DNA of 56,859 bases. Source: Methanolobus sp. Its GTDB lineage: Archaea; Halobacteriota; Methanosarcinia; Methanosarcinales; Methanosarcinaceae. Below are positions 25,330-43,369 of the stretch, one piece after another. The DNA is taken from the NCBI RefSeq assembly GCF_016278385.1, contig NZ_JADQBY010000011.1, positions 1 to 56,859 on the forward strand. Direction: 5' to 3'. A program made the position numbers and the translations under genes. The notes beneath the pieces are model-generated. The model did no database searches. It saw only the letters and a program-made list of their open reading frames with translations, and had not been told where the DNA came from. Within the stretch, counting starts at the first letter, position 1. Each line of letters starts with the position of its first letter.

Positions 25330-25385
25330 TGATGTCACCTCATAATAACTAAAAGCACAGGATAATCGGAGCCAATGGAGTTTAA

Positions 25386-27040: not shown

Positions 27041-27101
27041 AGCGGTTAAATAGTAGTAATTAGAGTATTTTAATTAATGTTTAAATTAATACGGTGACAA
27101 A

Positions 27102-27254: not shown

Positions 27255-27281
27255 TTGTGCTTGAACCTGTACATTGAGGGT

Positions 27282-27311
27282 TCAGGAGGGCTTGAGGGCA
27301 GGGCTTTCTTT
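27282..27311 (+). repeat. Direct repeat copy 1 (with a copy near 27951-27980)
   Basis: TCAGGAGGGCTTGAGG followed by GCAGGGCTTTCTT recurs as CACAGGAGGGCTTGAGGCAGGGTTTTCTT at 27952-27980. Weaker similarity continues downstream in both (TTGTAGGG about 50-70 bases on). The two copies flank the C2H2 zinc-finger gene. Confidence 0.5.
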
Positions 27312-27489
27312 GGTGGTTTGATGGTAGTGTATGGTTTGAACTATTAGTCGCTTGTAGGGTATGTGAGATTTCTAAATCTAAAAAAGACACGTAATGTATT
27401 GTTTTTCATTTATTTTTTAAATATTTCGGGCTGAGTCTATGAAAATAATTCTTTTCTTTTTTGGGCCAAACTTGTTGACTAGTTACTGG

Positions 27490-27795: not shown

Positions 27796-28133
27796 TATAT
27801 CCCTTTGACCGAATGCTTTGAAAGGCTTTATTAAGCTTTTTCTTTACAAAAAGATTTTGATTTTGTATTGAATTCTATGAATTCAAGAAGACTGGTTAAG
27901 ATTAGTTCTAAAGGTACGACTTAGATTAAGCTCATTAATACTTTTCAGGGTCACAGGAGGGCTTGAGGCAGGGTTTTCTTAGACTCGTTAAGATGTTTGT
28001 CTTAGATTTTCAACCCTTTGTAGGGCTTCTACAGGGGTGCAGGGTGTGGAAAGAGATGTTTGTAATCTAATCTACACATCACTTTCACCTTACTTGGCTT
28101 ATTCAGTTATATGCTGAAGACTAACTATTGTTC

Positions 28134-28361
28134 ATGAACACAACCGAACATGATAATACATTTTTCGTTGATAACTGGAAACCACGTTTGAAGAAGTCAA
28201 CCCGTGAGAAAAGCAAACAAGCTACTTGGGTTAAAGCAAGTAAACAGCTTATTCAAAAAACTGATGTACCTGTACAGAAGCCTTCAAAATGTCTGACCTG
28301 CGATAAGCTTAATGTATGTCAGCTCGTTGAACAGGGATGCACTGATATCTGCAGATACTAA
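28134..28361 (+). CDS. Small basic protein with four-cysteine C-terminal knot
   Basis: This 75-residue protein starts at ATG 28134 (a TTG lies two codons upstream). A lysine-rich middle (KPRLKKSTREKSKQ) is followed by CLTCDKLNVCQLVEQGCTDIC near the C-terminus, which offers five cysteines for zinc or an Fe-S cluster. I do not recognise the family. A Cas1-like tail fragment starts just after its stop in another frame. Confidence 0.5.
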   Translation: MNTTEHDNTFFVDNWKPRLKKSTREKSKQATWVKASKQLIQKTDVPVQKPSKCLTCDKLNVCQLVEQGCTDICRY

Positions 28362-28362
28362 T

Positions 28363-28467
28363 ACAAAGTACCTTTTGCATTATATGAAGAAGAATGCTGA
28401 AGCTGATAAGCCATTTACTCTAAACTCTCACGTAAGGGAAAGGTTGGATATGTGGGAAGGATGTTGA
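28363..28467 (+). pseudogene. Cas1-like C-terminal fragment (second copy)
   Basis: The frame reads TKYLLHYMKKNAEADKPF then TLNSHVRERLDMWEGC and stops. It aligns with the right half of the interrupted cas1 at 43098-43182 (HYVKK, GKPFSLNAHIKKRLEMWEGY), with about 70 percent base identity over 90 bases in the same orientation. There is no start or upstream body. It could be a transferred piece of another cas1 or a diverged duplicate of the insertion target. Confidence 0.5.
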
Positions 28468-28495
28468 TATTTTATCGAACTTCCCAGTTTATATT

Positions 28496-28981
28496 TTAAG
28501 CATTTGAGTCTCTCCATAGCAGTGTTTCTTTGAGTTTGCTCTGGAATAATTGAGGATAAGCTTCAGAAACAGAAATTAAATGAACCGTTTCAGGATATCT
28601 GGGGTCTTCTCCGATACCCAAACAGATGTATACTTTTTTTCCACTAGTTTTTTCCACTTCTTTATACCTATCCAATTGCCACGGTTTACAAATCTCACAA
28701 ACAAGCTGACCCCTAGTATTTTTGAAAAGCCCGTTTCGATATTTAGCTTCTATCCAGAATTCCTCTTTAGTTCTTTTATCTCTAAAAAGAAAATCAGGGT
28801 TCATGCTCCGTTCTTCAAATCTTTCCTTATTTGAATCAAAATCTTGTGTCATTTCTACAAGATCAAATAGCATATCTGTAAATATCTCTTTAGAAACAAA
28901 GTTTTCAAATCTTCCACCTTTTATTTCAGGTCTTTTACTTTTCCCAGTTACATCTTCTAATAATTCACCAAAAAATCCCAT
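28496..28981 (-). CDS. PD-(D/E)XK nuclease-fold protein
   Basis: The product has 161 residues from ATG 28981, which follows AGGTGA; a GTG lies three codons upstream inside that site. The catalytic motif is Pro62-Asp63 in NPDFLFRD and Glu78-Ala-Lys80 in FWIEAKYR, the classic PD-x-ExK of restriction-like nucleases. It has no helicase or methylase partner. The element context suggests a role in DNA processing or defence, but a non-restriction nuclease is equally possible. Confidence 0.7.
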   Translation of the reverse strand: MGFFGELLEDVTGKSKRPEIKGGRFENFVSKEIFTDMLFDLVEMTQDFDSNKERFEERSMNPDFLFRDKRTKEEFWIEAKYRNGLFKNTRGQLVCEICKPWQLDRYKEVEKTSGKKVYICLGIGEDPRYPETVHLISVSEAYPQLFQSKLKETLLWRDSNA

Positions 28982-29059
28982 GTTTTTCACCTACGTTTTT
29001 AAATCACTAAATTAATATTTAATTTAATAGTATATTATTTTGACGATACAACATAATTT

Positions 29060-29296
29060 TCTACTGATTTGTGGAAAGAAGCCAATAACATAGATGAGCA
29101 GGCTCTTGATGTGAAGAAGGCTCAGGAGTTCATCAACAAACAAGAGATAATGAGCAATATTCTCCAAATGTCACAATCTGAAGCGGAAGCTCTCGGAGTT
29201 TCTAGGAGCAGGTTTCAGGGGATGAAGAAGAGGATTAAGGAAAATGGGGATTTGAATTTGAATACTCCGGCAGTTAAAAGATTAATTCCTAGTTAA
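29060..29296 (+). pseudogene. Truncated Cas1-like C-terminal region (third copy)
   Basis: The open frame begins after a stop at 29054-29056 and reads FSTDLWKEANNIDEQAL, QEIMSNILQMSQSEAEALGV and SRSRFQGMKKRIKENGDL. Its S-x-S-E-A-x-x-L-G-x-S-x-S-x-x-x-x-M-K-K run matches the layout of the Cas1 tail at 25386/43098, but from a more distant relative. The only start is a TTG at 29069. Treated as a gene fragment; a free small protein of 75 residues is the alternative. Confidence 0.4.
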
Positions 29297-29373
29297 CAGA
29301 ACAAACTTTAACTGCTCAAAGATACTTTTGATAATGGATAAAAAACTATACCCAATATCTGAAAGGTGATTTT

Positions 29374-30045
29374 ATTTCAAAGACTGAGAACTCATACATT
29401 TGTCCTGTTTGTGGTTATGCTGGTTTAAATGAACCACCTTATGACGAATACGAGAATCCATCTTATGAAATATGTTCTTGTTGTGGATTTGAATTTGGTT
29501 TTGATGACCTAAGCTGTAAAAAGACATATGAAGAGTATCGTAATGAATGGATAAAAGAGGGTATGAAGTGGTTTAATCCTAGCAAAAAACCAGATAATTG
29601 GGACTATACAAAGCAATTTTCAAATATTGAAAGAGCTATTTTGATAGCTAATACAAATATTATTCAAATGATTAAGCAGTATAGGGATTTAACTATTTCA
29701 CTTGAAGAGTTATCTAAGGTTATTGAGGTGAATTCTTTTGCTCCGCCTGATTATTCCTATTCAGTGATTGTTTGTAAAGAACATGTAATAAATATTTTAG
29801 AGAAATACAAGCTAAATAAAACTTCAGAATTAGAGTTAGCAAGATGGGCTAAATTCATCATGTTTTCTGAATGGTATGATTACTGTGAAGAAAACTCAGA
29901 GTTAATTGCAAGCGTGTTAGCAGAATTAGAAGCTCCTTTGTTATGGAGCAACTATACTGATGGAGACAATGGAGAACTTGCAGAATTTATGGGTAAACTA
30001 TCATCTGAAAAAGTAGAAATGTACATAAAAGCTTTTGAAGAATAA
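29374..30045 (+). CDS. CPCC-type cysteine-rich protein, immunity-like
   Basis: The frame is open from 29335 without an ATG until 29563, yet the clearly conserved part lies before that ATG: YICPVCGYAGLNEPPYDEY, YEICSCCGFEFGFDD and TYEEYRNEWIKEGMKWF. This is the zinc-binding CPCC-like domain found in many bacterial proteins, often near toxin-immunity loci. A helical domain of about 150 residues follows. The start is either ATT at 29374, four bases after AGGTGA, or the 11-codon ATG frame at 29334-29369, which ends in that AGGTGA and would need a +1 shift. Confidence 0.6.
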   Translation: MSKTENSYICPVCGYAGLNEPPYDEYENPSYEICSCCGFEFGFDDLSCKKTYEEYRNEWIKEGMKWFNPSKKPDNWDYTKQFSNIERAILIANTNIIQMIKQYRDLTISLEELSKVIEVNSFAPPDYSYSVIVCKEHVINILEKYKLNKTSELELARWAKFIMFSEWYDYCEENSELIASVLAELEAPLLWSNYTDGDNGELAEFMGKLSSEKVEMYIKAFEE

Positions 30046-30049
30046 TAAC

Positions 30050-30391
30050 ATGGGCGATTCAATGTTTGAGGATATAGATTTCAAATCAAAAAGTCGTATG
30101 TACGACCCACAAAAGATTATTCCTGGAAGGAAACTCGAAGAACAAGAATTGGATGAGGATATTTTTCAAGTGAACTATGATATTGGAGATATCCACTATA
30201 CAATTGATGTGGGGTGGTATCCTTCCCATAGACTTAATGGTTCTTTCATGATTGTAATTGTCAAGAATTGTGATTGGGATAATTATCTCTATGAGAAAAG
30301 GACTAGAGACTATAATCAATTACACAAATACATGGAAGAGTGTGTTACTATTGTTAAGCAATTGTTAGAACCAACTGGATATTTTGACTAG
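30050..30391 (+). CDS. Small acidic protein, immunity-like
   Basis: The product has 113 residues from ATG 30050 (a TTG at 30035 is the upstream option), starting within 5 bases of the CPCC gene stop, so the two are an operon. It is a soluble alpha/beta protein with FQVNYDIGDIHYTIDVGWYP and CDWDNYLYEKRTRDYNQL. The size, acidity and pairing with a CPCC protein resemble bacterial immunity proteins. No toxin gene is present. Recognition is weak. Confidence 0.5.
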   Translation: MGDSMFEDIDFKSKSRMYDPQKIIPGRKLEEQELDEDIFQVNYDIGDIHYTIDVGWYPSHRLNGSFMIVIVKNCDWDNYLYEKRTRDYNQLHKYMEECVTIVKQLLEPTGYFD

Positions 30392-30569
30392 AAAAATAGA
30401 TTAATTCTTTTTTTGAATTGGTAATCTAAAATCACTTAGTTTTTTGAAAGTTCCGTTTTTTCTTGTTAACTATATCCCGACTCTGTCGTGCGATGGGTGT
30501 GATTTGAACTGAATTTGAATCTCTGACAGATTTCTGGCATAACAATACATCTCTTCATATCTATTCTGT

Positions 30570-30722
30570 TTTCAAGAATCCCTATGTTGAGAAGTATTGT
30601 TAGTTAAAGGTTCTAATACATCTACATCAAATAGACCCTACCAAGAAGCTTCTTATCATTCTGACAGCGTTTCAACACGTAACATGAAGACCAAGATGCT
30701 CGGACAATCCACACCCTGCCTG
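30570..30722 (+). repeat. Dispersed coding-tail repeat, copy A
   Basis: CCCTACCAAGAAGCTTCTTA then ATTCTGACAGC and ATGAAGACC recur at 31758-31920 and 36518-36695. In one frame the three read (D/N/A)PT-x-KLL-x-ILTA before a stop, with an upstream Y-I/L-x-L pattern, so they look like decayed copies of one protein tail. It lies in the gene-free stretch 30392-30787, which holds nothing else. Confidence 0.5.
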
Positions 30723-30787
30723 TTCGGTGCTTGCGCTTCCTGAATACAATACTGTTCTGCAAGATGCCACTATAAAAAAAGAAAAGG

Positions 30788-31456
30788 TCAAAATTCATAA
30801 ATGCTCAGCATCTTGTCATATTTTCCAGTTATCCCGGCATACAAGAGCTCAATTTCATCATCGGTATATTCTTCATTCTCCAATCTGGATATAACTTCTT
30901 TGCTGACAACAAGCGGCATAATCTCCGAATTGTAATAAGACTCGATGATAAAATCCCTCATTGCTGTAATGCTAGGATTTGACATGTCATCGTCAAATTC
31001 AACTGCTTGTGGATACTTTGCCCCAATTGCAGCAAAATCCCCCTGAGTAAATTCATACCCATTCGACCTCTTGCATTTTTCCACCATCGATGCCAACTCA
31101 GGATTCACTTTTATGCAGCAACCATTCAGCCGACAATCATTACAATTTTCATCGGTCTCAGGTGTCCCTGCAGTCAGACACATTGCAACTCGAATCCTGT
31201 TCTTCATGCTCATCATTGAACCATAATCCTCATTATCAAATTCAGCAATCTGCGGGTATTTATCCTTAATAATTGCCATATCATCAAGACTCAAAAGATC
31301 CCCTGCGTTCTCCACCATCAATGCTAATTTCGGTTTAACCGTCAAGCAACGGTCATTATCCCTGCACATTAAGCATTCTTCATTTGTCCCAATTACTTCC
31401 GAAGAAATACATTGCACGATTCTCATTCTTTCAGTTGAATTATTCTTGTTTTCCAT
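30788..31456 (-). CDS. Cysteine-rich protein with two tandem repeats
   Basis: The 222-residue protein is built from two repeats of about 80 residues. Each has R-I-x-x-x-x-C, then E-x-C-x-x-C-R, a further C near K-x-x-P-x-L-A-x-M-V-E, and a KYPQ-x-x-E-F-D block (compare CLMCRDNDRCLTVKPKLALM with CNDCRLNGCCIKVNPELASM). A helical tail follows. The cysteines could hold zinc or a cluster. It stands alone on this strand. Family unknown. Confidence 0.55.
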   Translation of the reverse strand: MENKNNSTERMRIVQCISSEVIGTNEECLMCRDNDRCLTVKPKLALMVENAGDLLSLDDMAIIKDKYPQIAEFDNEDYGSMMSMKNRIRVAMCLTAGTPETDENCNDCRLNGCCIKVNPELASMVEKCKRSNGYEFTQGDFAAIGAKYPQAVEFDDDMSNPSITAMRDFIIESYYNSEIMPLVVSKEVISRLENEEYTDDEIELLYAGITGKYDKMLSIYEF

Positions 31457-31757
31457 GTTATCTTTGTCCTTTATTTTAAATCACATTTACTTACTAATAA
31501 GCCGGAGCATACCGATATATGCACAATATACTATGCATTCAACATTTATAAAGGTTTTAGCCAAAATCAGCATGCAGCGCCTGCATTATAAAAAAGTCCC
31601 CTGAGTATATGTCCGCTGTAAAATGGTCACTTGAACCACATATTTATAACAAAATTTAAGCAGTATTAATTAGCAACACCCACAGGTCCTGCTGGTTGCA
31701 TGCCTGATTACGAAAACCCACAACAACACACTGGCAGGGAGTGTGGGGAAAGCGGTA

Positions 31758-31920
31758 CTTTCTTTCTACCCTGACCTGCTCTTTCGAGAATCCCCTGCCT
31801 CGAACCTTTAATCAAGTCGAGGTATATCTATGTCTTAACCAAATGAACCCTACAGCAAAGCTCCTCAACATTCTGACAGCACCTCAATATAAAGAATGAA
31901 GACCTTGATGCAATCTACAC
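31758..31920 (+). repeat. Dispersed coding-tail repeat, copy B
   Basis: It shares TTTCTACCCTGACCTGCTC (as TTTTTACCCTGACCTGCCTT) and the CCCTACAGCAAAGCTCCTCA / ATTCTGACAGC block with copy C, and the latter with copy A. The frame reads QVEVYLCLNQMNPTAKLLN then ILTAPQYKE before a stop. It lies in the 600-base gene-free stretch 31457-32053, which otherwise contains only AT-rich sequence and a TGGGGA/GTGTGGGG-rich segment near 31739. Confidence 0.5.
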
Positions 31921-32053
31921 GATGTCAATTTTTAAATCTCTGTAGTTACTGTCACCTTATTTGAACCCCTTCATTTCGAGTGCAATTGTGCATAAATAAA
32001 TATATTTGTTAAAATAAATAAAATAAAGACCATTAAAACATGAAAGATGCGTA

Positions 32054-32350
32054 TCATTTCCGCACGCTGAGATTATAATTCGGATAAATCCCCTCAAGAA
32101 GCTCTTCAAATAGAGTAAGTTCATTATTGTTCAATGGAATACCATATCTCCGCTTCCTATCTGCAACCCAAGCTGAAAGTCGTTCCTGAAGCTCTGGTTC
32201 ATATTCATTCTCCTTAATAAAATGCAAGCAATCACGCACAAAATATCGCTGTTCTGTTCTGGAAAAACTCTTCAGCGTCACTTGCTCTTCAGGATTATGT
32301 CTACAATTACGGTCAATAATATCTTTGAAATCTCGAAGTCTTGTTTGCAT
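32054..32350 (-). CDS. Small helical protein of unknown function
   Basis: The product has 98 residues from ATG 32350, chosen for its AAGGGAG site nine bases upstream; the frame is open to a TTG at 32473. It is rich in charged helices (RLRDFKDIIDRNCRHNPEE, RTEQRYFVRDCLHFIKENE, LQERLSAWVADRKRRYG). No domain is recognised. The single-gene context gives no functional clue. Confidence 0.45.
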   Translation of the reverse strand: MQTRLRDFKDIIDRNCRHNPEEQVTLKSFSRTEQRYFVRDCLHFIKENEYEPELQERLSAWVADRKRRYGIPLNNNELTLFEELLEGIYPNYNLSVRK

Positions 32351-32579
32351 AGCATAAGCTCCCTTGTTAGTGTTGTTTAAATATTCCAGCGACATTGCAT
32401 ATAAGCTTATGCGGCTCTTGCCATCGATATTATTGTATGTGCTCAGCCTGAATACTTTTATGTTGCTTAACAAACGTTGTCTATTTGAAATCTATTCTGT
32501 AAGAAGTTCAGTAAAACACTATTGATTCAAGTGAATTTGCCAGTGATTATTGTAGTTATTACTGATTAGTATGGAGGAG

Positions 32580-32611
32580 GAAAGAAAGAAAGAAAGAAAG
32601 AAAGAAAGAAA
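32580..32611 (+). repeat. GAAA tetranucleotide tract, eight units
   Basis: Eight uninterrupted GAAA units follow ATGGAGGAG at 32571. They would encode a 19-codon frame (MEEERKKERKKE...) that ends at a TAG soon after. Loss or gain of a unit would change the frame. The region 32351-32841 contains no convincing gene, so the tract may simply be slippage-prone spacer. Confidence 0.8.
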
Positions 32612-32841
32612 ATTCTCTGCTTTGCTATAGGCTCAACAATTAAGTCCCAAAGTGTCTATAAATAGATTTTTGAAATAAGCACACTAAATATAGTTATCCA
32701 AATATATTATTAATGAATGATTTTGTGCAAAACATTTAATCGTTCGTAAAGTGTGTATATTTAATTATTTCAACATTTCCCTTCATTTTAATTAGAAGCA
32801 TTTATATTATTTTATGTAATGGATTCATTTGTGATTATTCA

Positions 32842-33582
32842 ATGAAAATGTCCTTATTTGGTATTATTTCTCCTGTTACCCTGCTGAAGGTCAGTTCATT
32901 AGATGAACTGATTTTTGTGTTTTTTCCGACCGTTATTGGTTATTTCAGTGGAATTTCAATATTCTTTCCCATTCCCCTAGGTTGGAAGTATCTTATCTTT
33001 GTAATTATTTTCATACCACTTTTTGTGATATTTATGTGGTGTAGGAAACGAAATTATGAACGAGCAATTGCTGAAGCTCTTGAAACAGGATATTTCATGA
33101 ACTTCATAGAGGGGACAGCTTCATTTATCAGCTCAAGAAAAATACAAAATAAATCTATAGTTATTAATTCTGCAGATGGTAAATCCATAACCGTAGACAG
33201 CGATAAAATCAATGTAAAAGTAATTCTGCCAGAATCCCTTTCAAAATTGAATGATACAATAGCAGTAGTAGAAGAATTGACTAATCGAGGTAGCCTCGAG
33301 AACGGTACGTGGATACTTTATGAGAAAAATATAGGTGAGAAGTTAACTATCTACGATTATCCTCGAACAATGACATCAATGGGTAAATATCTTAAAGACA
33401 TGCCAGGGAAATATGATGAGCTGAAATCCAAAACACTGCACAAGTATTTCAATGCAAGATTTAAAGATGACTGGGATACTGCAGCAGAAACAATTAGCAA
33501 AAACACCTTTATGATTATCAAAGTGCCTCCGAATTTTACAAAAGACGAACTTATGTCTCAACTAATTAAATTGGTGCCATAA
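32842..33582 (+). CDS. Two-helix membrane protein with a STING-like C-terminal domain (candidate)
   Basis: The protein has 246 residues. Two helices (about 22-44 and 47-66) are followed by a cytoplasmic domain of 175 residues. That domain has a long first helix ending GYFMNFIEG (83-91), a strand and turn VKVILPESL (125-133), a strand then YDYPRTMTSM (171-180) starting a helix, and a C-terminal strand FMIIKVPP. The order resembles the TM-STING effectors of CBASS, whose ligand-binding domain has a long N-F-containing helix, an IxxxxP strand and a D-x-P-x-T motif. No CD-NTase lies nearby. The assignment rests on pattern memory and needs a profile search; otherwise it is a membrane protein of unknown function. 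Confidence 0.4.
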   Translation: MKMSLFGIISPVTLLKVSSLDELIFVFFPTVIGYFSGISIFFPIPLGWKYLIFVIIFIPLFVIFMWCRKRNYERAIAEALETGYFMNFIEGTASFISSRKIQNKSIVINSADGKSITVDSDKINVKVILPESLSKLNDTIAVVEELTNRGSLENGTWILYEKNIGEKLTIYDYPRTMTSMGKYLKDMPGKYDELKSKTLHKYFNARFKDDWDTAAETISKNTFMIIKVPPNFTKDELMSQLIKLVP

Positions 33583-33660
33583 GAGTCTGATAATCTATCG
33601 TTTTTGGGCATCACAAATTACAAGTAATGATTTATTCTCGATTTTCTTTTTATTCCTTTT

Positions 33661-33754
33661 TAGTATGTAGATATCTTTATTTGAACAACAAATATAGCCT
33701 TGACAGGTACGTAAAGCTTCTATTTTTTATTTAATCGAGGATTTCTAAAGAGCC
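33661..33754. repeat. Decayed 94-bp MITE related to the IS remnant at 50769-51250
   Basis: The left part (TGTAGATATC ... ACAACAAATATAGCCTTGACA) aligns with the left end and interior at 50775-50812 (TGTAGAAATC ... ACAACAAGTATAACCTTGACA). The right part GAGGATTTCTAAAGAGCC (33737-33754) matches the right inverted repeat with one mismatch. The whole gene interior is missing. Confidence 0.6.
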
Positions 33755-33854
33755 CTATAGACCCTACTACTAAAATAGAATAAGGTATCTCTAATTAATA
33801 TTACGTTTATGGTCAAGTGACATACATTCTTTATCCCTCTGGATTCATAATCGT

Positions 33855-34493
33855 TTACTTTTCTAATTTTAATGTATTATAACCAATTAACCCCATCCAA
33901 ATCAATCCACTGAGAACTGCTAACCACTCTAAAAGTGGCATATGCACTCCCACTGTAGAAGCTAAAATAAAGAGGAAATTAATCATAATTGTTATTAAAG
34001 CATAGTACCAAACAAATTTAAGATAGTGTAGATGGGTCTTTAGTGCAATATTTGTGAGAATCATAAAAATGAAAAATAGGATAAAAAAGATTGATGCCCA
34101 AAAATAATGGATTGCACCATAATCTTCTGAAAATATGCCTACCATAATAAGAGCAAGCGCCATTAACAACCCACAAAATTGTGAAAAGAGAAGAATATTA
34201 TTTTGTTTACAACTAGGAGTCTTCCATTTTTCTAGGCCGATAGTTGATATTATAATGGCCATTCCTACAAAAATGCACCCAATATCAAAGTAAATATGCC
34301 CAGCTGGGTTTTTATTTGAACTTCCTAAATCGCTAATCCAATTATTAAATATTGAATATGATCCATTGTATAGCATTGATGAAGCAAGTGCACTCATGAA
34401 TGAAATAACGATGATTATAAAGCTCCCCATGCTAGTCAAAGGCATTTTTTTAGTATTCAAGAGTCTCATTAAGCATCCCATTCCATAAATCAT
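33855..34493 (-). CDS. Six-helix membrane protein (DUF998-like)
   Basis: The 212-residue protein has six hydrophobic segments. The motif NWISDLGSSNKNPAGHIYFDIGCI (residues about 49-72) is typical of DUF998 and related Frag1/DRAM-like proteins (S-D-L-G then N-P-A). An HYFWA motif follows in helix four. Three ATGs lie within the first nine codons; the first is used. Its function is not known in the family. Confidence 0.65.
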   Translation of the reverse strand: MIYGMGCLMRLLNTKKMPLTSMGSFIIIVISFMSALASSMLYNGSYSIFNNWISDLGSSNKNPAGHIYFDIGCIFVGMAIIISTIGLEKWKTPSCKQNNILLFSQFCGLLMALALIMVGIFSEDYGAIHYFWASIFFILFFIFMILTNIALKTHLHYLKFVWYYALITIMINFLFILASTVGVHMPLLEWLAVLSGLIWMGLIGYNTLKLEK

Positions 34494-34747
34494 ATAAAAC
34501 TCTTTTTTAGAGTCGTATTGACAATTCCAGCTTATCCCAAAAAGGTTCGACTTTTTTAATCAATCAATTATATCAGGGTATCATGAAAATATTTTAGGTT
34601 AGTATCCGAAGATATTAACGCTTAGTTATGTCGGTTTATCTTCACATAATTTGATTATTATAACTAAGTGAAACTATAAAAATGGCTAGGTGATGAAGAT
34701 TTAACAGAACCCTAAATCATTATATTCATGAAAGACATGTCTATGCC

Positions 34748-36199
34748 TTATGTATTCTTATTCAATGAAATCAGCTGGAAGAACAAGCTAAAGACAGGTA
34801 TCCCGTAAGTTATAATGCTTGGTATGGAAATTACATTACTTGATAGTATCGGCAAATATTCAGAGAAGTAGGGTATAAAAATCAATAGAAACAAAGGTAC
34901 GATACATGATATAAAGAGTTTCATAATAATTCCCATGTTGAGAGGTAATATGGGGAGTTTGTTATTACGCGTGTAAACCTGTTTTCTCCCCTCTAGCTCT
35001 ATTTGGATACTTTCAAAATCGGTTGAGCCAAGTTTTCCTGCCTCACTCAATAGTCTAGATTCCAATTCGTTAATCGAGTGTTCAATTTGATATAATAGTT
35101 CTTGTTTAATCTTCCTCCATTTACTCATTTGTTGATGTACTTTTTGTACAGGCCATATGAAAAATAGTACAAGTGGAAAAATACCTAATATGATAAATAA
35201 TAGTGAAAACTCGAAAACAAAGTAGTATGGCACAGGGTAATCACATTGAACTGTCGTAAGAGCTCCTAGAAGCAAACCGAAACTTAAATAAATTATCGGT
35301 ATATCGGCAATAATTAGGCTCCATAGGCACAGATTGCCTATGGGAGAGAGTCCACCTGCCATATCTGGATGTCCAAGTTTTGGTTCTATTTCGAATTCAT
35401 TCATCATTTTGGATATATATATAGAGGATATAAGCATCCTCCAAATCATAAGTCCAATAGCAAAAGAAATTAATGAAACTGGCAATTCATTTAACATGTG
35501 CCAATTATTCTGAATAAATGTTTGCCACGCTACCCTCTGATCCAAATTCATAAGTAAGTAACTAAATTCTCTTCCAAGTTCAGGGTTACGTAAAGTACTC
35601 AATGGATTCCAGAGAAACGTCAGCCCGAGAACAAATAAACCCATGCCATATTGTGGCCAGTGAGTTAACCACTTTTGCATATTTGACATAAACCCACTGA
35701 ATCTTTCTTCAACCGATACAAAACCTTTGATATTCATATCGTTTAGATTTAAACCCAAACTAAGGACCCAGACGATATTCTTTATAACTTTATTGTAAAT
35801 CCTTGAAATCCATTTATTATTTGAATCAGGAATAGAAACCCCTACAATAATCTTTCGATACCATAAGATACGAAAAGTTTCTGGTATTTTTTCTACAAAT
35901 TTGCGCTGAGTATAGAGACACAGGCCAGCTGAACAGTAACCAGATATAATTATTGGCAACCATTCATTAATATAACTCTCTTCTTCATATAATTCTATAT
36001 GTTGTGTAATAAAGATAAGGATTGCAATGAAAAAACAAAGACCTGGCAAACAGTACAGAATATATTTCAAAAGGGTGCTTTTGATGGGTTTCAAATCATC
36101 AAAAATTTCAGGCACTATTTTTCCACGTGGTGTATCTTCTTTATTATTCGGTCCCTTTTTGTCTTCAAACTTAACACCTCGGGCCCATATTATAGTCAT
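34748..36199 (-). CDS. Large membrane protein with HPDMAGGL motif
   Basis: The 483-residue protein has about eight membrane helices, a hydrophilic N-terminus and, between helices five and six, the conserved-looking motif HPDMAGGLSPIG. A basic coiled segment (KWRKIKQELLYQIEHSINELESRLL) precedes the last two helices. Proteins with an HPDxAGGL loop occur in bacteria and archaea without known function. With the STING-like and DUF998-like proteins it forms a three-gene membrane cluster in the mobile block, although the genes are not all on one strand. Confidence 0.55.
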   Translation of the reverse strand: MTIIWARGVKFEDKKGPNNKEDTPRGKIVPEIFDDLKPIKSTLLKYILYCLPGLCFFIAILIFITQHIELYEEESYINEWLPIIISGYCSAGLCLYTQRKFVEKIPETFRILWYRKIIVGVSIPDSNNKWISRIYNKVIKNIVWVLSLGLNLNDMNIKGFVSVEERFSGFMSNMQKWLTHWPQYGMGLFVLGLTFLWNPLSTLRNPELGREFSYLLMNLDQRVAWQTFIQNNWHMLNELPVSLISFAIGLMIWRMLISSIYISKMMNEFEIEPKLGHPDMAGGLSPIGNLCLWSLIIADIPIIYLSFGLLLGALTTVQCDYPVPYYFVFEFSLLFIILGIFPLVLFFIWPVQKVHQQMSKWRKIKQELLYQIEHSINELESRLLSEAGKLGSTDFESIQIELEGRKQVYTRNNKLPILPLNMGIIMKLFISCIVPLFLLIFIPYFSEYLPILSSNVISIPSIITYGIPVFSLFFQLISLNKNT

Positions 36200-36517
36200 T
36201 CTAAAATACCGTTTATATTTATTTAATCTTTGTATTTAAGGTAACGTATCTAAAATGCTGTAAAATATGATAGTTCTGTGTTTTATTAGGACAATTCCTA
36301 ATATTGGTAATGTTCCCATATCCTGTCATTCTGTCCATCTGATTATAACCGAAATTAATTTGAAGAACCTAGCAATAAATGTTTCTATTTTATTCAAGCA
36401 ATGTATATTAAACGTATATTATTTGGACCAGTATTATCCTTTTTAGAAATCTCAAAAGAACCCTATAGTGCTCTGTATGAGTGCCTTTATAACGCATTTT
36501 GGCAAACCAGCACTTTT

Positions 36518-36695
36518 CTTTTTACCCTGACCTGCCTTCTCTACAATGCCCTGTGTCGGGTTATTTCATCAGGTCAATACATAATTCATCTGCGTGAAAT
36601 TGCCCCTACCAAGAAGCTCTTCAGAATTCTGACAGTATCAGCAGCATGCAAGATGAAGGTCAGATAACAGGTCAGACAATCCACAACCCTGCCTG
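36518..36695 (+). repeat. Dispersed coding-tail repeat, copy C
   Basis: It contains TTTTTACCCTGACCTGCCTT, CCCTACCAAGAAGCTCTTCA, ATTCTGACAG and CAGACAATCCACAACCCTGCC, shared with copies A and B. The frame reads YIIHLREIAPTKKLFRILT before a stop. It lies at the start of the 1.45-kb gene-free stretch 36200-37654. Confidence 0.5.
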
Positions 36696-36745
36696 ACGTT
36701 TGCTATGCGATGTATTTTTTGGTATTTGATATTTTAGGAGAGGGG

Positions 36746-36811
36746 GTGACTGCGCTTCGGTGCACCGAGTCAAAGACTGTGCACGCTGAGGCGCAGCCGA
36801 AGCGCAGTCAC
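36746..36811. other. GC-rich nested stem-loop
   Basis: GTGACTGCGCTTCGG (36746-36760) and CCGAAGCGCAGTCAC (36797-36811) are perfect 15-bp inverted repeats. Inside, two GTGCAC palindromes (36760-36765, 36779-36784) enclose AGTC-AAA-GACT, so the whole can fold as a branched arm. The structure is far richer in GC than its surroundings. It lies upstream of the iterons and replication gene, in sequence with no open frame, and may be part of an origin, a transfer site or an RNA. Confidence 0.6.
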
Positions 36812-37433
36812 TAACATTACGTTGGGTTAAAAAGGGTGAGTAGCTTGATAATAATTAGTAATACTGCTCCGTTTTGGATATAAATCCAGTTTTAATAGCT
36901 TCATCCGCAGGTGCCTGCCTGTGTTTGGAGGTGGATTTGGATTGGATTTGGAAGCTAAATTATTGGATAATATAAAGGTCGGGACGTGTTATTGGGTCTA
37001 AAAACGCTAAAAGCCCCCTTCCAGTCCACGCGTCCTCGGAGAGTACGCTCCTTCTCAGCATACGAAGTAAGTAGGATAAATGTATAATACGTAGCGGGAA
37101 GCGTTATTGTACTGGCAGCGATACCAAAAACATATATGGTAGAACGACGGAATTATAATTTACAGGTTCGAGAGCAGCCTTCCTTTATAATGCGGTAAAA
37201 AATATTGTCTCTGCGAAATGTCAAAAAATGTATTCTTTCCATACTCGAACCTGCATGATTTTCAATAACCATCAACACTCAATGCCCTCAGAATGCCCGA
37301 CATTGAACGATTAAGAAGCAGTTAAGGTGTTTCTACCTTTGAAATCTAATAAAGCTTCCAATTATCAGCATCAATGTACCTTTTAATAAGCAACTCACAG
37401 GCAGGGACTGTGGATGAAGACGATTTTAAAGTA

Positions 37434-37632
37434 TTTCACTAAATTCACTGAATTCCCCGATTTCACCTATTCTCTCAAAGAATCAAAAATCATCTTAATA
37501 AAGATAATAAAAGTACGTATATGTATAGGATATAATTTATTACATTTAATTTATATTATTTGTTTGTTTATTATGCTTCTCTTTTGCAAGAGAACTGGTG
37601 AATTTGGTGAATCGAGTGAATCGAGTGAAAAT
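37434..37632. other. Two inverted iteron arrays, putative replication origin
   Basis: On the right, four 9-bp direct repeats GGTGAATTT, GGTGAATCG, AGTGAATCG and AGTGAAAAT run from 37597 to 37632. On the left, 37434-37467 holds four repeats of the same family on the opposite strand (GGTGAAATC, GGGGAATTC, AGTGAATTT, AGTGAAA). About 130 bases of AT-rich DNA separate them. The site adjoins the 3' end of the prim-pol gene. Repeats of this spacing next to a replication gene are typical of plasmid origins. Confidence 0.6.
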
Positions 37633-37654
37633 AAAAAAAGTGAGAAGATTGTAG

Positions 37655-39904
37655 TCACAACTTCTCAATTGCGGAATCTTTTTTGAGCACATAGTACTTT
37701 GCACCAGTTTTCTTCTCAGTATATTCTTCGATAACACCTGATTCTTTCAAAGTCGATATTACTCTATTAAAGTCATCGGACAATAGTTTGGAACTTTTGA
37801 GAAGCATAGAATGCTGGCAAGTCCCTCCTTTTCTCCTCAATACATTCACTACCTTTTCGACCTTATTGCGCTGTTCATCCTCCTGTAATTGCTCAAGAGT
37901 TTCTATGCATGTTGGGAAAAAGTACTCCTTAACAATCCTACAAGCTTCCTTCATGGTATCAAGAGTGATGGTGAAGTTTGGATGTGGTGCTTTTCCTATC
38001 TCGATAAGCATGCACAATTTAAGGATATGGTCGACATTGCGGCCCCATGCAGAAGCCATATCATCTTCGTTTAATTTGATGATTTTCTCCTGCATTTCCT
38101 TATCAACTTTATCGAGGTATTCCATAGCATCGGGGTTTACTTTGACACCAATCTCCTTTCTAATATTGCCAATTATTTCATATATGTGCCTGTAGGCTTT
38201 TGAGACATCTGCGTGTGCTTTGACATCTATTATTTCTTCGAGTGCAAGGGGCATTCGGTCTTTTTTGTATTGTGGATGACAATATAGATGCCGGAACCCA
38301 TACCCGGTTCTGAAATTGGCTACAGTCATGCATGAAGAATAATTATGACCTGTTGTACCGGAGAGGCGTGTGACATATGGATCTTTAACAACATCATCAT
38401 CCTTTTTGTCGTCATCTTTAGATTTCCGACTGCTGCTCGCAAGGGTCTTGCGTACAGATTGGCAATCATATATTGAATTCTCAAGCTCATATATTCCATC
38501 ATTGTAACTTTTGTTGTATTTCTGTAAGAGACCTACAACTTCATCTCGTACAAAATTAGATATTGGCTTTGATTGCAACAGGTTTAGGTATCCTTCTAAC
38601 GAATAGTCGTCATTGAAGAGCTTTTCTTCAGTGATCAATTCCCAGAAACTCTTTGCCTTGTTGATGGATGTACTTTTTCTGGAAATTGTAGATAGTCCAA
38701 ATAGCATGATGTACAGGTTTGGATATATCACTCCTTGCTTAAGCTTCAAACTGACTTTTTTCCTACATGCTGCTGAAAGCAACCACATAGCACACATTAT
38801 ATTGTAGTCTTCGTATGCATCAGTTATTCCACTCATGTAGCGACAGTACTTGCTTATAAAGTGGTCATCTGGTAGGTTAATTTCCAACTTTCGACTCCGT
38901 GACTTTGTACCCTTTGCACGTATGTCCTCAAGTGACATCGTATTCGTTTCACAAGAAGAGTTAGGTGGCAATGTCGTGGGCTTCTCACCGTCCTTGTGGA
39001 ATTGTGCGAGTACGGAGTCGGCCTTGATGGCTTCAGTTGTTGCAGGTGTTGGCTTGATATGACTGAGTTCAGTAAGCGACTGATTTTCATTGTAGTCTTC
39101 TTCAAAGGCCAGCATGCAGACCAAGAGCATTTCCTCGTGAGTTGCACCATTGACCTTCAATTCTGCCATCAAATGAAGCATCCGTTGCCGACTTTCCATC
39201 CCCCGGAATACTTTTAAATCGTGGTATTGGGGATGTTTGTCGTCGATGAATACAGCATTGAAGAAACCACTGAAGGTAGGCCTGCACTTATTCAATGTCA
39301 GCTTGAGCTTATTGAATGTTGCTAGTATCTGATTCAATCTCTCAATGACAAGCTCGGGTATTTCAGGCCTGTTTGCGATGTTACCTTCCATAACATATTG
39401 TTCACCTGATACGTGGACCGATGGTGCAAGTACTACATTGCCACCTTTAGATAACATATCAAAGCCAAGTGGCTTACAGTGCTTGAGCTTGAATTTGGGA
39501 TTGAACTTAAAGAATTCATGCCACCGACCAGATGTCCGACTTTGCTGTACAAAGTTTGATTTGTCAATACCACTTAAGATGGTATCCCAAATTCCTTTGA
39601 CATACCAGTCGATATCTATTACCATCAGGTTTGAGGCTAATCCGCACACAGCCCCGAGGTTGCAGTCTCTCTCGATTAAGTAGTCTTTGATTTCTGCATC
39701 GGTCATGGGTTCCGTCAGCTTTTGCCATCCTGGCTTGAGAGGTCTTTTGCCGGGGCTTGGGCCCCCAGCTGTTGGCGACGATAGCGGATGTGTGACGATA
39801 CCAGTTTCTCTGTAGAGTATTGCTGCATCAACAATTGGATTTGAGGGCATTAGATGCCCTCCCATTCCGTAATCAATGACTCTTTCAGTCTCAATTCTGC
39901 TCAT
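37655..39904 (-). CDS. Prim-pol / DUF3987 replication protein of an integrated replicon
   Basis: The 749-residue protein has an N-terminal primase-polymerase domain with the metal pair Asp97-x-Asp99 in VIDIDWY, preceded by KRPLKPGWQKLTEPMTDAEI and followed by RTSGRWHEFF. The central part resembles DUF3987 helicase-like proteins, with a degenerate P-loop GLSTISRKST (403-412) where the usual GK is RK. A winged helix (KVEKVVNVLRRKGGTCQHSM) closes it. Such proteins initiate replication of archaeal plasmids and viruses. An AAGGAGGTGAT ribosome site precedes the ATG, which overlaps the upstream gene. Confidence 0.8.
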   Translation of the reverse strand: MSRIETERVIDYGMGGHLMPSNPIVDAAILYRETGIVTHPLSSPTAGGPSPGKRPLKPGWQKLTEPMTDAEIKDYLIERDCNLGAVCGLASNLMVIDIDWYVKGIWDTILSGIDKSNFVQQSRTSGRWHEFFKFNPKFKLKHCKPLGFDMLSKGGNVVLAPSVHVSGEQYVMEGNIANRPEIPELVIERLNQILATFNKLKLTLNKCRPTFSGFFNAVFIDDKHPQYHDLKVFRGMESRQRMLHLMAELKVNGATHEEMLLVCMLAFEEDYNENQSLTELSHIKPTPATTEAIKADSVLAQFHKDGEKPTTLPPNSSCETNTMSLEDIRAKGTKSRSRKLEINLPDDHFISKYCRYMSGITDAYEDYNIMCAMWLLSAACRKKVSLKLKQGVIYPNLYIMLFGLSTISRKSTSINKAKSFWELITEEKLFNDDYSLEGYLNLLQSKPISNFVRDEVVGLLQKYNKSYNDGIYELENSIYDCQSVRKTLASSSRKSKDDDKKDDDVVKDPYVTRLSGTTGHNYSSCMTVANFRTGYGFRHLYCHPQYKKDRMPLALEEIIDVKAHADVSKAYRHIYEIIGNIRKEIGVKVNPDAMEYLDKVDKEMQEKIIKLNEDDMASAWGRNVDHILKLCMLIEIGKAPHPNFTITLDTMKEACRIVKEYFFPTCIETLEQLQEDEQRNKVEKVVNVLRRKGGTCQHSMLLKSSKLLSDDFNRVISTLKESGVIEEYTEKKTGAKYYVLKKDSAIEKL

Positions 39905-40176
39905 GCAATCACCTCCTTGTTCTGTGCAGCTTTCAACATTGCGTTAGCAGCTTTTATGATAGGCAAATCCCTGAAGTAGGTCTCAGAGGATTCTTCATTT
40001 GAGATGCCTTGAAGGGGTGCGATTGCTACCTTTGAGTTATCAGTCTTATCACCTGTGATTAGGTCAGAATACGGTGCAGAAAGGCTTATATGCTGGCAGG
40101 AGGACTCATGTATGCAGGTACATGGTTCAGCTATATGTTCCTTATAATAAGGGGAACGAGGGTCTGATGATTTCAT
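39901..40176 (-). CDS. Small protein upstream of the replication gene
   Basis: This 91-residue protein has cysteines in CTCIHESSC and otherwise polar sequence, with a helical end (PIIKAANAMLKAAQNK). It overlaps the prim-pol start by four bases and begins just before the end of the gene upstream, so it belongs to a four-gene operon. Family unknown; perhaps an accessory replication factor, from context only. Confidence 0.6.
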   Translation of the reverse strand: MKSSDPRSPYYKEHIAEPCTCIHESSCQHISLSAPYSDLITGDKTDNSKVAIAPLQGISNEESSETYFRDLPIIKAANAMLKAAQNKEVIA

Positions 40177-40177
40177 T

Positions 40178-40627
40178 TCAGACCCCCTTCTTTAGCTGAT
40201 CAAATTGTTCATAACACTTGAGTCTTTCTTCAAAGGCCCCACGTTCTTGATTTGTCAGTTTGTCACCGTAGTAATGTAACAGTGCTCTGATGTCTTCCTT
40301 ACCTAATATCGACGTTTCGAAGGACTTGTATACATCTTGAGAATCTGGTTCTGTTTCGACATATGTTTCGTTCAAAATGTATCCCACGATACGAGTGGAC
40401 ATTGTGATATCTTTTATATCAACGTTCTTCAATAGTTCAGCAATGCTGTCATTCTCATCTTTTTTATTAATCAATTTAATTAATACTGACAGATTATCAG
40501 TGGGACCTTGTGGATTTATTTTTATCTCACTGAATAGAACTATGGCCAGATTTCTTGTTGTTTCGGATGACCACATAAGGTCTAAGGGATCATCATATGA
40601 GTTTGAATTTATCTCAAATTCAGTCAT
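40178..40627 (-). CDS. Hypothetical protein in the replication operon
   Basis: The product has 149 residues from ATG 40627, which follows GGTGAT; a GTG lies three codons upstream. Mostly helical and acidic, with DPLDLMWSSETTRNLAIVLF and KLTNQERGAFEERLKCYEQF. No domain is recognised. It overlaps the gene before it by 8 bases and lies 1 base from the gene after it. Confidence 0.6.
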   Translation of the reverse strand: MTEFEINSNSYDDPLDLMWSSETTRNLAIVLFSEIKINPQGPTDNLSVLIKLINKKDENDSIAELLKNVDIKDITMSTRIVGYILNETYVETEPDSQDVYKSFETSILGKEDIRALLHYYGDKLTNQERGAFEERLKCYEQFDQLKKGV

Positions 40628-40820
40628 TATTATCACCTTCTCTTTTATATATTAATGTTGTGTGCGCATGTTCGTGCATATCATTTGCCTCCCCAGTTTT
40701 GAGTATACCGTTGGCTAATGCCCGTTTGGTTATGTCTGTGGAATCTTTCCACTTCGCTACGATGCTTGGATTTTCGGGGTCAATTTTGAGACCACCGGCT
40801 ATCTGTAATGTATTTTTCAT
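40620..40820 (-). CDS. Small hypothetical protein, first in the replication operon
   Basis: The product has 66 residues from ATG 40820, chosen for GGAG six bases upstream; a GTG at 40841 is in frame. It is polar, with ITKRALANGILKTGEAND and a histidine-rich MHEHAHTTLIY. An AT-rich TATA-like box (around 40862-40875) is placed to drive this operon. Function unknown. Confidence 0.55.
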   Translation of the reverse strand: MKNTLQIAGGLKIDPENPSIVAKWKDSTDITKRALANGILKTGEANDMHEHAHTTLIYKREGDNND

Positions 40821-40984
40821 ATTGTGCTCCGAATGAGCCACACCAACAAATCAAAAGAAGCCTTTAAATATAATCTGCAACATAAATACAATTGTTCAAT
40901 CTTGTTTCATGCGCAGGCGACTTCGTTTGCTTTGCGTGTGATTCATTTATCTTTTGTGTTTATAATCGGTACTTGAGATCAGTT

Positions 40985-41110
40985 TCAGATGTCGAAACCT
41001 TTCTGTCTTGCAATCTCGACAACAGTTTTACCTGTTCGTTCTGATTCGTTAATTATTTCTTTATAGCGCCTTTGCGCTTCTCCTTCTATATATTTGTCCA
41101 GTTCACTCAT
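40985..41110 (-). CDS. Small helical protein (41 aa)
   Basis: The frame encodes MSELDKYIEGEAQRRYKEII followed by NESERTGKTVVEIARQKGFDI. A clear GGAGG sits five bases before the ATG. It follows the RHH gene on the same strand after 42 bases, so the two are probably one transcript. Too short to assign to a family. Confidence 0.55.
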   Translation of the reverse strand: MSELDKYIEGEAQRRYKEIINESERTGKTVVEIARQKGFDI

Positions 41111-41152
41111 GTTCCTCCATGAGTCGTTGAGGGCTTTCTTGGAGGGATTTAT

Positions 41153-41287
41153 TTATTGTGGGGGTGTATTCTTCATCTGTTCGTGCAGTAGTTCACTTAT
41201 GAATTTGGAACGATTGTGTCTACCACGGGCATTTTCAAGCCATTCAAATATTTCTGGTTCAAATGCTATAGAACGTGCATATCTCAT
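41153..41287 (-). CDS. Ribbon-helix-helix (CopG-like) regulator (44 aa)
   Basis: The frame encodes MRYARSIAFEPEIFEWLENA, then RGRHNRSKFISELLHEQM. A basic strand followed by two helices with S-K-F-I-S-E-L is the RHH fold. GAGGTGA lies seven bases before the ATG. Such proteins are common repressors in plasmids, and tandem direct repeats near its promoter (41350-41369) may be its operator. Confidence 0.65.
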   Translation of the reverse strand: MRYARSIAFEPEIFEWLENARGRHNRSKFISELLHEQMKNTPPQ

Positions 41288-41340
41288 GATTTTTATTTCA
41301 CCTCTTTTATTGTGATTATAAGACATTAATACCTTTTAGT

Positions 41341-41369
41341 ATATAAACATGTGGTCAAATGTAGTCAAA
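41341..41369 (-). promoter_or_regulatory. Candidate promoter and operator of the RHH gene
   Basis: TGTGGTCAAA and TGTAGTCAAA stand in direct tandem (41350-41359 and 41360-41369) beside a TATA-like ATATAAA (41341-41347), about 55 bases upstream of the RHH start. Two half-site repeats next to a promoter suit an autoregulating RHH dimer pair. The rest of 41370-41648 shows no gene. Confidence 0.35.
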
Positions 41370-41648
41370 AAATCAGCACCTAGCGGAATCATCTAACATT
41401 TTTTTCTATTAACTTTGGTATATATCCAAATTGTATAGGGTACGAAGATTTTGTCTTTCAAATGTGGTAAAACAGGAAGAAGAGAAGTTACGCTAATTAA
41501 TGGTTTTTTTTATATCAGATGACCGAATTAACAGTTAAGGCCTATATTTTCGAGTAGCTGCGAAACTTTAATATTTATTTAATATTTATCTAATGTTTTC
41601 ATAGTCTCCAAACTCAACACACACTTTGATTAAAAATAAAATTTAGAG

Positions 41649-42920
41649 CTATTTTATATTTTTCTTTAATAGCTCTGCAACTTTGTCATTTATCGCAGAT
41701 TCAATGAGGCTTTTCATGTCTCCGAGTTCTGCTTTTATTTCTGCATTTTCAGATTTGAGTTCGGAAAGCTCGTGCCTTTCGACAATGGTTTTTGCGGTTT
41801 CAGCTCTTAAGATGTCGTTTTCGTTCTTTATCACTGTGTATTCGGGAGATTCGGAGATGTCAAGCTCTTTTTTAATCGTGATGAAGGGAATGTACTTTTG
41901 ATATATTTTCTTGAGCTTTTCGGGGTCTCCTTCGAAGTATGCGGCTTTTGAACCGTCAAGCTGGTGACCCATCATGTACTCAATGAGGTCGCTGTCCATT
42001 CCTTCATTTTTCAAAGAGGTATTGAAATACTTTCGCATGTTATGGCTGCGTAGGGGGTTAAAGATTCCTGGGCCTGCCCTTGCCCCTAGGTCTGCACTAA
42101 TGCGGTTGTAGAGAAGAGTGATATTTTCCGATGTCAGTCTTCTTATTGATTCATTCTGTGACAGTAGATACTCTTTTTTGACCTTGTTTTGGATAAAAAG
42201 ATAACTGCCGGGTGTAACCTTACGCTTTTCATATTCTAAAAGGTCGCATTTTTCACTCCCTGCAGGTGGTCTGTCTCGCCATTCAAGATAATTTAAAACG
42301 GCCTTGCTGGCTTCTGGTGATATGAAGGTAATGAAATCGATACCAACCTTACGCCTGCGCATATCAAAGGTCGTTATTCCGGTTTTAGAGTCGTAACCTT
42401 CATTGAACTGGGCAACTTTTAGGCTGGCTATTTCGCTTGCCCCCATTCCAGAAGATAAACCGATGAGCATAACCGCTTTGTCTCGAATGCTGGCGATGTC
42501 AAGGGCTGCACGGATAAGGTCTTTGTCTGGACGTTTCAGGTTCTCTTTCAGGGGTTTGACATTGCTCCCGCTTCGAGGTTGCTTTGGGGTGTCTATGTAA
42601 AAATAGTTGTAAAATGAAATGATTTTTCCGACGTGCTTCTTTATTGTGCTAGGTGCGAGTGGGTTCGCAACTTTGTTGTTCTGCTTCTGCAAGTAATCAC
42701 GGAACCCAGGTATTCTAACAAATACTGCCCGGTCTGTCATGAGTTTTCCGGCTTTTATATCTCGGTTACCTTCATCGATGAGCTCGCTAGGTGTTAATTC
42801 TGTGAACTTAGTGTAGTGTGCAAGTGCTGATAGATACCCTTGTCTGGTACTCTTGGCAGGGTTAATCAAAGAAAAAAGCTTAATAACTACCGGGTCTTTT
42901 TCTATATCTATAGTATTCAT
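41649..42920 (-). CDS. Tyrosine recombinase (integrase) lacking the first catalytic arginine
   Basis: The product has 423 residues from ATG 42920, which follows AGGAAAG; the frame is open further upstream. The N-terminal SAM-like core-binding domain is followed by the catalytic domain with HNMRKYF (His293, Arg296), GHQLDGSKAAYF (His319, Tyr328) and a long C-terminal coiled coil. The site that should hold Arg I (normally in G-L-R-x-S-E) reads SSGMGASEI, so no arginine is present. It stands near the right border of the mobile block, as an integrase would. The missing arginine suggests it can no longer catalyse strand exchange normally. Confidence 0.85.
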   Translation of the reverse strand: MNTIDIEKDPVVIKLFSLINPAKSTRQGYLSALAHYTKFTELTPSELIDEGNRDIKAGKLMTDRAVFVRIPGFRDYLQKQNNKVANPLAPSTIKKHVGKIISFYNYFYIDTPKQPRSGSNVKPLKENLKRPDKDLIRAALDIASIRDKAVMLIGLSSGMGASEIASLKVAQFNEGYDSKTGITTFDMRRRKVGIDFITFISPEASKAVLNYLEWRDRPPAGSEKCDLLEYEKRKVTPGSYLFIQNKVKKEYLLSQNESIRRLTSENITLLYNRISADLGARAGPGIFNPLRSHNMRKYFNTSLKNEGMDSDLIEYMMGHQLDGSKAAYFEGDPEKLKKIYQKYIPFITIKKELDISESPEYTVIKNENDILRAETAKTIVERHELSELKSENAEIKAELGDMKSLIESAINDKVAELLKKNIK

Positions 42921-43097
42921 TTTTATTCTTTCCTGTAGTATATAAGAACTACTACAATAAGGTATTAACTCCGATAGGAAAGCATATATTGTCATTAGGA
43001 ATAATGTCGTATGTTCTTAGTTTTGTCTGCATTTTAGTCGATTCAAACAGAATTAAGAACACATTTATTACTTTTGACTGTCAAACTTGGGCTGCAT

Positions 43098-43182
43098 TAT
43101 GTGAAAAAATGCAAAGGGGGGTAAACCGTTTAGTCTGAATGCTCATATTAAGAAAAGGTTAGAAATGTGGGAAGGGTATTGA
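43098..43182 (+). pseudogene. cas1: Right half of the dead cas1 C-terminus
   Basis: Directly after the target duplication CTGCAT (43092-43097) the frame continues YVKKC, and after a slip in a G run (43116-43121) reads GKPFSLNAHIKKRLEMWEGY and stops. It completes the fragment at 25386-25495. The gene-free stretch 42921-43369 otherwise holds the right IS end (43077-43091) and AT-rich DNA; a 33-codon frame at 43239 has no support. Confidence 0.55.
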
Positions 43183-43369
43183 AACTGAATGAAAAAAATA
43201 AAAAATTAATATACTAACAACTTTGTTTATAGTGTATGCTTCCAAAAGATAAGGATTATTGGGGAGCTTTAATCTTATACGGTAAAAAGCAATATTACCT
43301 CAAAAATCAATCAGAAAAAATAAACACCATCAACTAAACAAAGAAAAAATAAAGATTCCGGCATTGATT

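What the first reader, a model, noticed from the sequence alone, without database searches (positions are those of the whole stretch)
37434..37632. Paired inverted iteron arrays beside the replication gene
Four 9-bp repeats (GGTGAAT/AGTGAA type) on the plus strand at 37597-37632 are mirrored by four of the same family on the minus strand at 37434-37467, around an AT-rich core. This is a plausible origin, with the adjacent prim-pol protein as initiator.
Basis: seen in the sequence. Interest (0 to 1): 0.6.

Follow-up and report, generated by a model that had tools for sequence, protein, structure and literature searches.

The report
Paired-repeat replication origin beside archaeal primase gene
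An integrated mobile element in a methane-producing archaeon (probably Methanolobus) has two mirrored sets of 9-letter DNA repeats at the end of its replication gene; dozens of relatives keep the same layout with different repeat letters, often inside the gene itself, which marks it as the element's probable replication start site.

Summary
In 56.9 kb only two chains of three or more 9-bp-phased RGTGAAT-type sites exist: four at 37597-37632 (+) and four at 37434-37467 (-). Shuffles give 0.03 such chains. The 113-bp core is 19% G+C, against 38% for the window. The adjacent gene (37655-39904, -) encodes a pRN1-like prim-pol, an MCM-like AAA+ domain (DUF3987) and a C-terminal winged helix. It lies in an 18-kb island with an integrase. 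In 22 of 31 related prim-pol loci (3.6 expected) the strongest inverted repeat sits at the same place, the 3' end of the prim-pol gene, mostly as paired inverted arrays of ~9-bp units. The unit's letters differ between elements. In most relatives the arrays lie inside the open frame, where the two arms encode different peptides, so selection acts on DNA. Arm mismatches recur every 9 bp, which favours protein-binding iterons over a plain stem-loop. Best reading: an iteron-based origin bound by its own prim-pol initiator, working like the PICI/SaPI pri-rep-ori and the 3' pRN1 origin, but a member of neither (different proteins or helicase). Not universal: several relatives lack arrays. No functional test was possible.

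The parts
37434..37467 (-). Left iteron array: four 7-bp units (RGTGAAT type) at 9-bp steps, one degenerate
37476..37588 (.). AT-rich core (113 bp, 19% G+C), candidate unwinding region
37597..37632 (+). Right iteron array: four units at exact 9-bp steps, inverted relative to the left array
37434..37630 (.). Whole putative origin; arms 37434-37475 and 37589-37630 are the best inverted repeat of the window
37655..39904 (-). Putative initiator, 749 aa: PF09250 prim-pol (31-181), DUF3987 with an MCM-like AAA+ fold (about 345-660), winged helix (about 680-740)
39901..40176 (-). Small ORF (91 aa), probably co-transcribed with prim-pol, no Pfam match
40178..40636 (-). ORF (152 aa), probably co-transcribed, no Pfam match
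41153..41326 (-). Small ORF (57 aa) that reads like a ribbon-helix-helix regulator (by eye only; no Pfam match above cut-off)
41649..42995 (-). Tyrosine integrase (PF00589) of the element
25342..43364 (.). 18-kb stretch absent between the same two flanks in a related genome (G116); holds the element and perhaps other insertions

Best explanation
The feature is the replication origin of an integrative element of Methanosarcinales. The element's prim-pol/helicase protein binds the 9-bp iterons with its winged-helix domain. The two arrays point at each other across an AT-rich core, which would place two helicase assemblies face to face. The core would then melt, the helicases would take the strands, and the prim-pol domain would lay the first primers. 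Shown: the arrays, their conservation of layout with change of letters, their fixed place at the 3' end of the initiator gene, and the protein's domains. Inferred: binding, melting, loading and priming.
For: Exact phased mirrored arrays, only here in the window. Target region holds the top inverted repeat in 22 of 31 non-redundant relatives against 3.6 expected; score >=16 in 18/31 target windows against 6/304 control windows of the same loci. Best internal lag of the arms is 9 in most high-scoring loci (lags 5-15 scanned). Iteron letters differ between elements (GTGAAT, GTGAAA, GTGATT, ACTAAA, GCGAACATT, GCTAACTTT, GCTAGAACT, GGGAACTT). In several relatives the layout is finer: left array, a middle pair of units about 20-36 bp before the right array, right array inverted. 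Where arrays are coding, the two arms encode different peptides (L060: SSSSSSSS against TARTARTAR; L057: NVRNVR against TLRTLR), so DNA is what is kept. Arm mismatches are periodic at 9 bp (46.3 against 19.6 +/- 4.0, 0 of 500 permutations). Protein: pRN1-type prim-pol, MCM/ORC-like AAA+, winged helix. A locus fetched afterwards (L170, 27% identity to the window protein) shows GTGAACTT-type 9-bp arrays 68-160 bp after its stop codon. The window's own genome has a second prim-pol with a different array of the same kind (L112, GGTATCAGT).
Against: No binding or replication data. Several relatives lack arrays (L053 at about 32% identity, L062, L049-L052, L065, L068; L102-L104 outside the order; L172, L173, L169). 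The AT-rich core is clear only where the arrays lie after the stop codon (19-34% G+C), not where they are coding. Iteron similarity follows winged-helix similarity only weakly (rho 0.16, partial 0.24). No circular or plasmid form of such an element was seen.
Confidence: 0.8

Rival explanations
1. A stem-loop origin of the pRN1 kind: the arms matter because they pair with each other as a hairpin or cruciform, not as repeated binding sites.
For: pRN1 and relatives use a 3' stem-loop whose sequence drifts while the structure stays (PMC4234260). The window segment folds better than all shuffles (z -3.4).
Against: Mismatches fall in the 2-bp spacers and recur every 9 bp across elements. The arms carry direct repeats with unequal copy number (L057: six against three). 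The loop is long and unpaired in the centroid structure. A selected stem would not need internal periodicity.
Confidence: 0.12
2. A partition (centromere-like) or handcuffing/copy-control site bound by another protein.
For: Iteron clusters also serve partition and copy control in known plasmids (general knowledge).
Against: No ParA-type gene among the neighbours scanned in the window or in L039. The array follows the prim-pol gene through changes of helicase type and is often inside that gene.
Confidence: 0.06
3. An operator or RNA element: the repeats regulate the transcript, end it, or pair as RNA.
For: The site lies just after the prim-pol stop codon in the window.
Against: No Rfam match; the one terminator-like site lies outside the arms (37396-37412); in relatives the arrays are deep in the coding sequence; RNA pairing does not explain 9-bp phasing.
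Confidence: 0.04
4. Chance or simple-sequence artefact, or repeats kept as amino-acid repeats.
For: Where coding, the arrays fall in low-complexity linkers and 9 is a multiple of 3.
Against: Statistics; the 9-bp period also holds outside coding sequence (window, L047, L054, L056, L058); opposite arms encode unrelated peptides.
Confidence: 0.01

Closest known systems
PICI / SaPI pri-rep-ori module (PMC6092414, PMC7581432)
   Same: [quoted passage not shown] the origin is read by the C-terminal domain of a helicase/initiator; integrase-borne elements.
   Different: Archaeal host; archaeo-eukaryotic prim-pol and MCM-like DUF3987 helicase instead of the PICI primase/Rep; arrays often inside the coding sequence; no phage-induction or packaging genes recognised here.
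pRN1 family plasmids, ORF904 and its 3' origin (PMC4234260)
   Same: Prim-pol domain of the same fold, C-terminal winged helix, origin directly downstream of the prim-pol gene, sequence-divergent but layout-conserved.
   Different: pRN1 has an SF3 helicase and, by its authors, no iterons but a 100-bp stem-loop. Here the arms are phased 9-bp units with mismatched spacers.
Satellite phage P4 alpha protein and its ori/crr
   Same: One protein with primase, helicase and winged-helix origin binding that recognises short repeats (as summarised in PMC4234260).
   Different: Bacterial Toprim primase and unrelated sequence; array positions relative to the alpha gene were not tested here.
SCCmec Cch2 operon origin (PMC7581432)
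   Same: A 3'-to-5' initiator helicase acts on direct repeats downstream of its operon.
   Different: Three short direct repeats, no paired inverted 9-bp arrays; different primase-polymerase.

Membership tests
Iteron-type plasmid/MGE origin | Several phased direct repeats next to an initiator gene | tested here: met
Iteron-type plasmid/MGE origin | AT-rich unwinding region adjacent to the repeats | tested here: met
   window core 19% G+C; not clear in relatives with coding arrays
Iteron-type plasmid/MGE origin | Initiator binds the repeats and the segment replicates | not testable with these tools
   needs EMSA/footprint and a replication assay
PICI (SaPI-like) element | Two iteron sets flanking an AT-rich region 3' of the initiator gene | tested here: met
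   PMC6092414
PICI (SaPI-like) element | PICI-type pri/rep proteins | tested here: not met
   the protein is prim-pol + DUF3987; tblastn of the window protein against phage records gave no match
PICI (SaPI-like) element | Phage-dependent induction and packaging | not tested
   no such gene was recognised among those scanned; induction not testable
pRN1-type replicon | Prim-pol domain homologous to ORF904 | tested here: met
   PF09250 E 1.4e-12; Foldseek hits 3m1m, 1rni, 9aam
pRN1-type replicon | SF3 helicase | tested here: not met
   DUF3987 with MCM2-7/ORC-like AAA+ matches
pRN1-type replicon | Stem-loop, non-iteron origin 3' of the gene | tested here: not met
   position met, but arms are phased iterons with mismatched spacers
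P4 alpha-type replicon | Toprim primase + SF3 helicase + winged helix | tested here: not met
   archaeo-eukaryotic prim-pol and a non-SF3 helicase

The most novel reading that the evidence does not exclude
Methanosarcinales elements share an origin design in which the initiator gene carries its own origin inside the coding linker after the winged helix. Layout (left array, middle pair, inverted right array, 9-bp phase) is fixed, while the repeat letters change quickly along with the reader domain and stay through exchange of helicase type (MCM-like, D5-like, fused to family-A polymerase). The letters would then act as a replicon-specificity label, and the facing arrays would load an MCM-like double hexamer without ORC.
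Probability: 0.4. Interest if true: 0.75.

Novelty: new variant of a known kind. Interest (0 to 1): 0.6.

Why it matters
The PICI authors describe two iteron sets flanking an AT-rich region as an origin layout found in no other known bacterial replicon (PMC6092414), and the pRN1 authors proposed that prim-pol initiators use stem-loops rather than iterons (PMC4234260). Here the paired-iteron layout recurs in archaea with an unrelated prim-pol/MCM-like initiator, mostly written inside the initiator's own gene. That gives a concrete, small test system for how an MCM-related helicase can be placed on an origin without ORC, and a handle for plasmid vectors and replicon typing in methanogens.

Tried and rejected
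Single-protein scans of genome contigs and viral contigs found nothing; plasmid and phage records held no tblastn match; PDB profile search found nothing by sequence, the fold search did. A 7-mer counting scan was swamped by A/T words in AT-rich loci (window, L047, L056, L058), and in many loci its counts do not exceed the shuffles; it was used only to map positions, and the phased-chain test replaced it for the window. Covariation of iteron letters with the winged helix was tested and is too weak to claim. Att sites: the best direct repeat (28439-28467 / 43154-43182, 29 nt) appears to be two copies of a coding 3' end and is not a convincing att pair, so element ends remain open. Circularity of short contigs: none. 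RNA family and terminator readings: no support.

Full report
What is there. The window is contig C22 of a 2.88-Mb archaeal genome. Its genus is probably Methanolobus: two same-genus genomes, G129 and G127, have contigs whose lengths match named Methanolobus records. The arrays are exactly as described: four 7-bp units with 2-bp spacers on + at 37597-37632, four on - at 37434-37467. They are the only 9-bp-phased chains of three or more such sites in the window; shuffles give 0.03. The arms are the window's best inverted repeat, and the 113 bp between them are 19% G+C.

The neighbour. The 749-aa protein on the minus strand ends 22 bp from the right array. Pfam gives prim-pol (PF09250) and DUF3987. 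AlphaFold2 on an 11-row alignment gives mean pLDDT 80 with a classic winged helix at about 680-740, and Foldseek finds the pRN1 prim-pol (3m1m, 1rni) and MCM2-7/ORC chains; that these cover the N-terminal and AAA+ parts respectively is inferred from the domains, since the table does not print the matched residues. DUF3987 was proposed as a helicase of mobile elements before (PMC5862659). A tyrosine integrase lies upstream, and an 18-kb stretch around the module is missing between the same flanks in a related genome.

Relatives. A protein search of 186 genomes of the order gave 39 genomes with prim-pol relatives; 33 loci were read. In 22 of 31 non-redundant loci the region around the 3' end of the prim-pol gene holds the locus's top inverted repeat (3.6 expected), and 18 of 31 target windows score >=16 against 6 of 304 control windows. 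For L040 and L059, whose frames run on into polymerase or exonuclease domains, the target window was placed at the array itself, so those two count as descriptive. Most of the high-scoring arms have a best internal period of 9; L063 has 11. The letters differ: GTGAAA in L039, GTGATT in L043, ACTAAA in L046, GCTAACTTT in L055, GCGAACATT in L057, GCTAGAACT in L060, GGGAACTTG in L041/L044/L054/L056.

Arrays inside the gene. In the closest relative (L039, 50% identity) and most others the arrays lie inside the open frame, in the linker between the winged helix and, in many, a conserved three-helix C-terminal domain. The same DNA, inverted, then encodes two different peptides, for instance SSSSSSSS and TARTARTAR in L060. 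Selection is therefore on the DNA. In the window, L047, L054, L056, L058 and L063 the arrays follow the stop codon, and there the core is AT-rich (19-34% G+C). Where the arrays are coding the core is not consistently AT-rich, which weakens the unwinding step for that class.

Iterons or stem-loop. pRN1 uses a 3' stem-loop (PMC4234260), so this had to be separated. In the window the predicted hairpin leaves the 2-bp spacers between units unpaired. Over 20 elements, mismatches between arms recur at 9 bp (46.3 against 19.6 +/- 4.0; 0 of 500 permutations; the neighbouring period 10 is also high, 43.2), as expected if only the units are kept. Copy numbers on the two sides are unequal in some elements. 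This favours repeated binding sites.

Layout. L039, L040, L043, L046, L048, L055 and L057 share a three-part layout: left array, a middle pair in the same orientation about 20-36 bp before the right array, and the inverted right array (spacing read by eye from the printed starts). The window lacks the middle pair.

Limits. Arrays are absent in L053, L062, L049-L052, L065, L068, and in L102-L104 from other families of the phylum, as well as in three of four distant relatives. The fourth, L170 at 27% identity, does have GTGAACTT-type 9-bp arrays just after its stop codon, found after the hypothesis was set. L105, from another family, has GGTTATC repeats spaced about 10 bp. The link between iteron letters and winged helix is weak with the present sample.

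Comparison. [quoted passage not shown] The window's element is not a PICI by its proteins. It resembles pRN1 by prim-pol, winged helix and position, but differs in helicase and in having iterons. It is filed as a new variant of the iteron-type mobile-element origin. A prior report of these arrays was not found in the papers searched, which hold open-licence texts only.

Noticed in passing
window 32842-33582 (+): 246-aa membrane-like protein with a prokaryotic STING domain (PF20300, E 1e-9) in the same island; no cyclic-nucleotide synthase gene was recognised next to it.
   Followed up: partly
L040 (G162:C76), L059 (G165:C59): Prim-pol/helicase genes whose open frame runs on, after the iteron arrays, into a family-A DNA polymerase with 3'-5' exonuclease (L040, 1589 aa) or into an exonuclease domain alone (L059).
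   Followed up: partly
L112 (own genome, C18:28593-29399): A second prim-pol gene in the same genome with its own, different paired array (GGTATCAGT units) inside the open frame.
   Followed up: partly
C-terminal ends of L039, L043, L046, L048, L053, L112 and others: Conserved C-terminal domain of about 55 aa (three helices, pLDDT 80) with no Pfam match, shared across prim-pol proteins; missing from the window protein.
   Followed up: partly
window about 30640, 31860, 36600 and 37270-37410: A repeated intergenic element (CTACCAAGAAGCTC...TTCTGACAG...) recurs in the island, one degenerate copy directly left of the origin; seen by eye.
   Followed up: no
window 28439-28467 and 43154-43182: 29-nt imperfect direct repeat that looks like two copies of the same coding 3' end, near the right end of the element.
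   Followed up: partly
L071 (G147:C1) around the prim-pol stop codon: Three copies of a 12-bp word ATTGGTCAGAGG in alternating orientation at the 3' end of a prim-pol gene, a different repeat style.
   Followed up: no
window 25613-27040 (-): DDE transposase gene at the left edge of the island, so the 18 kb may be more than one insertion.
   Followed up: no
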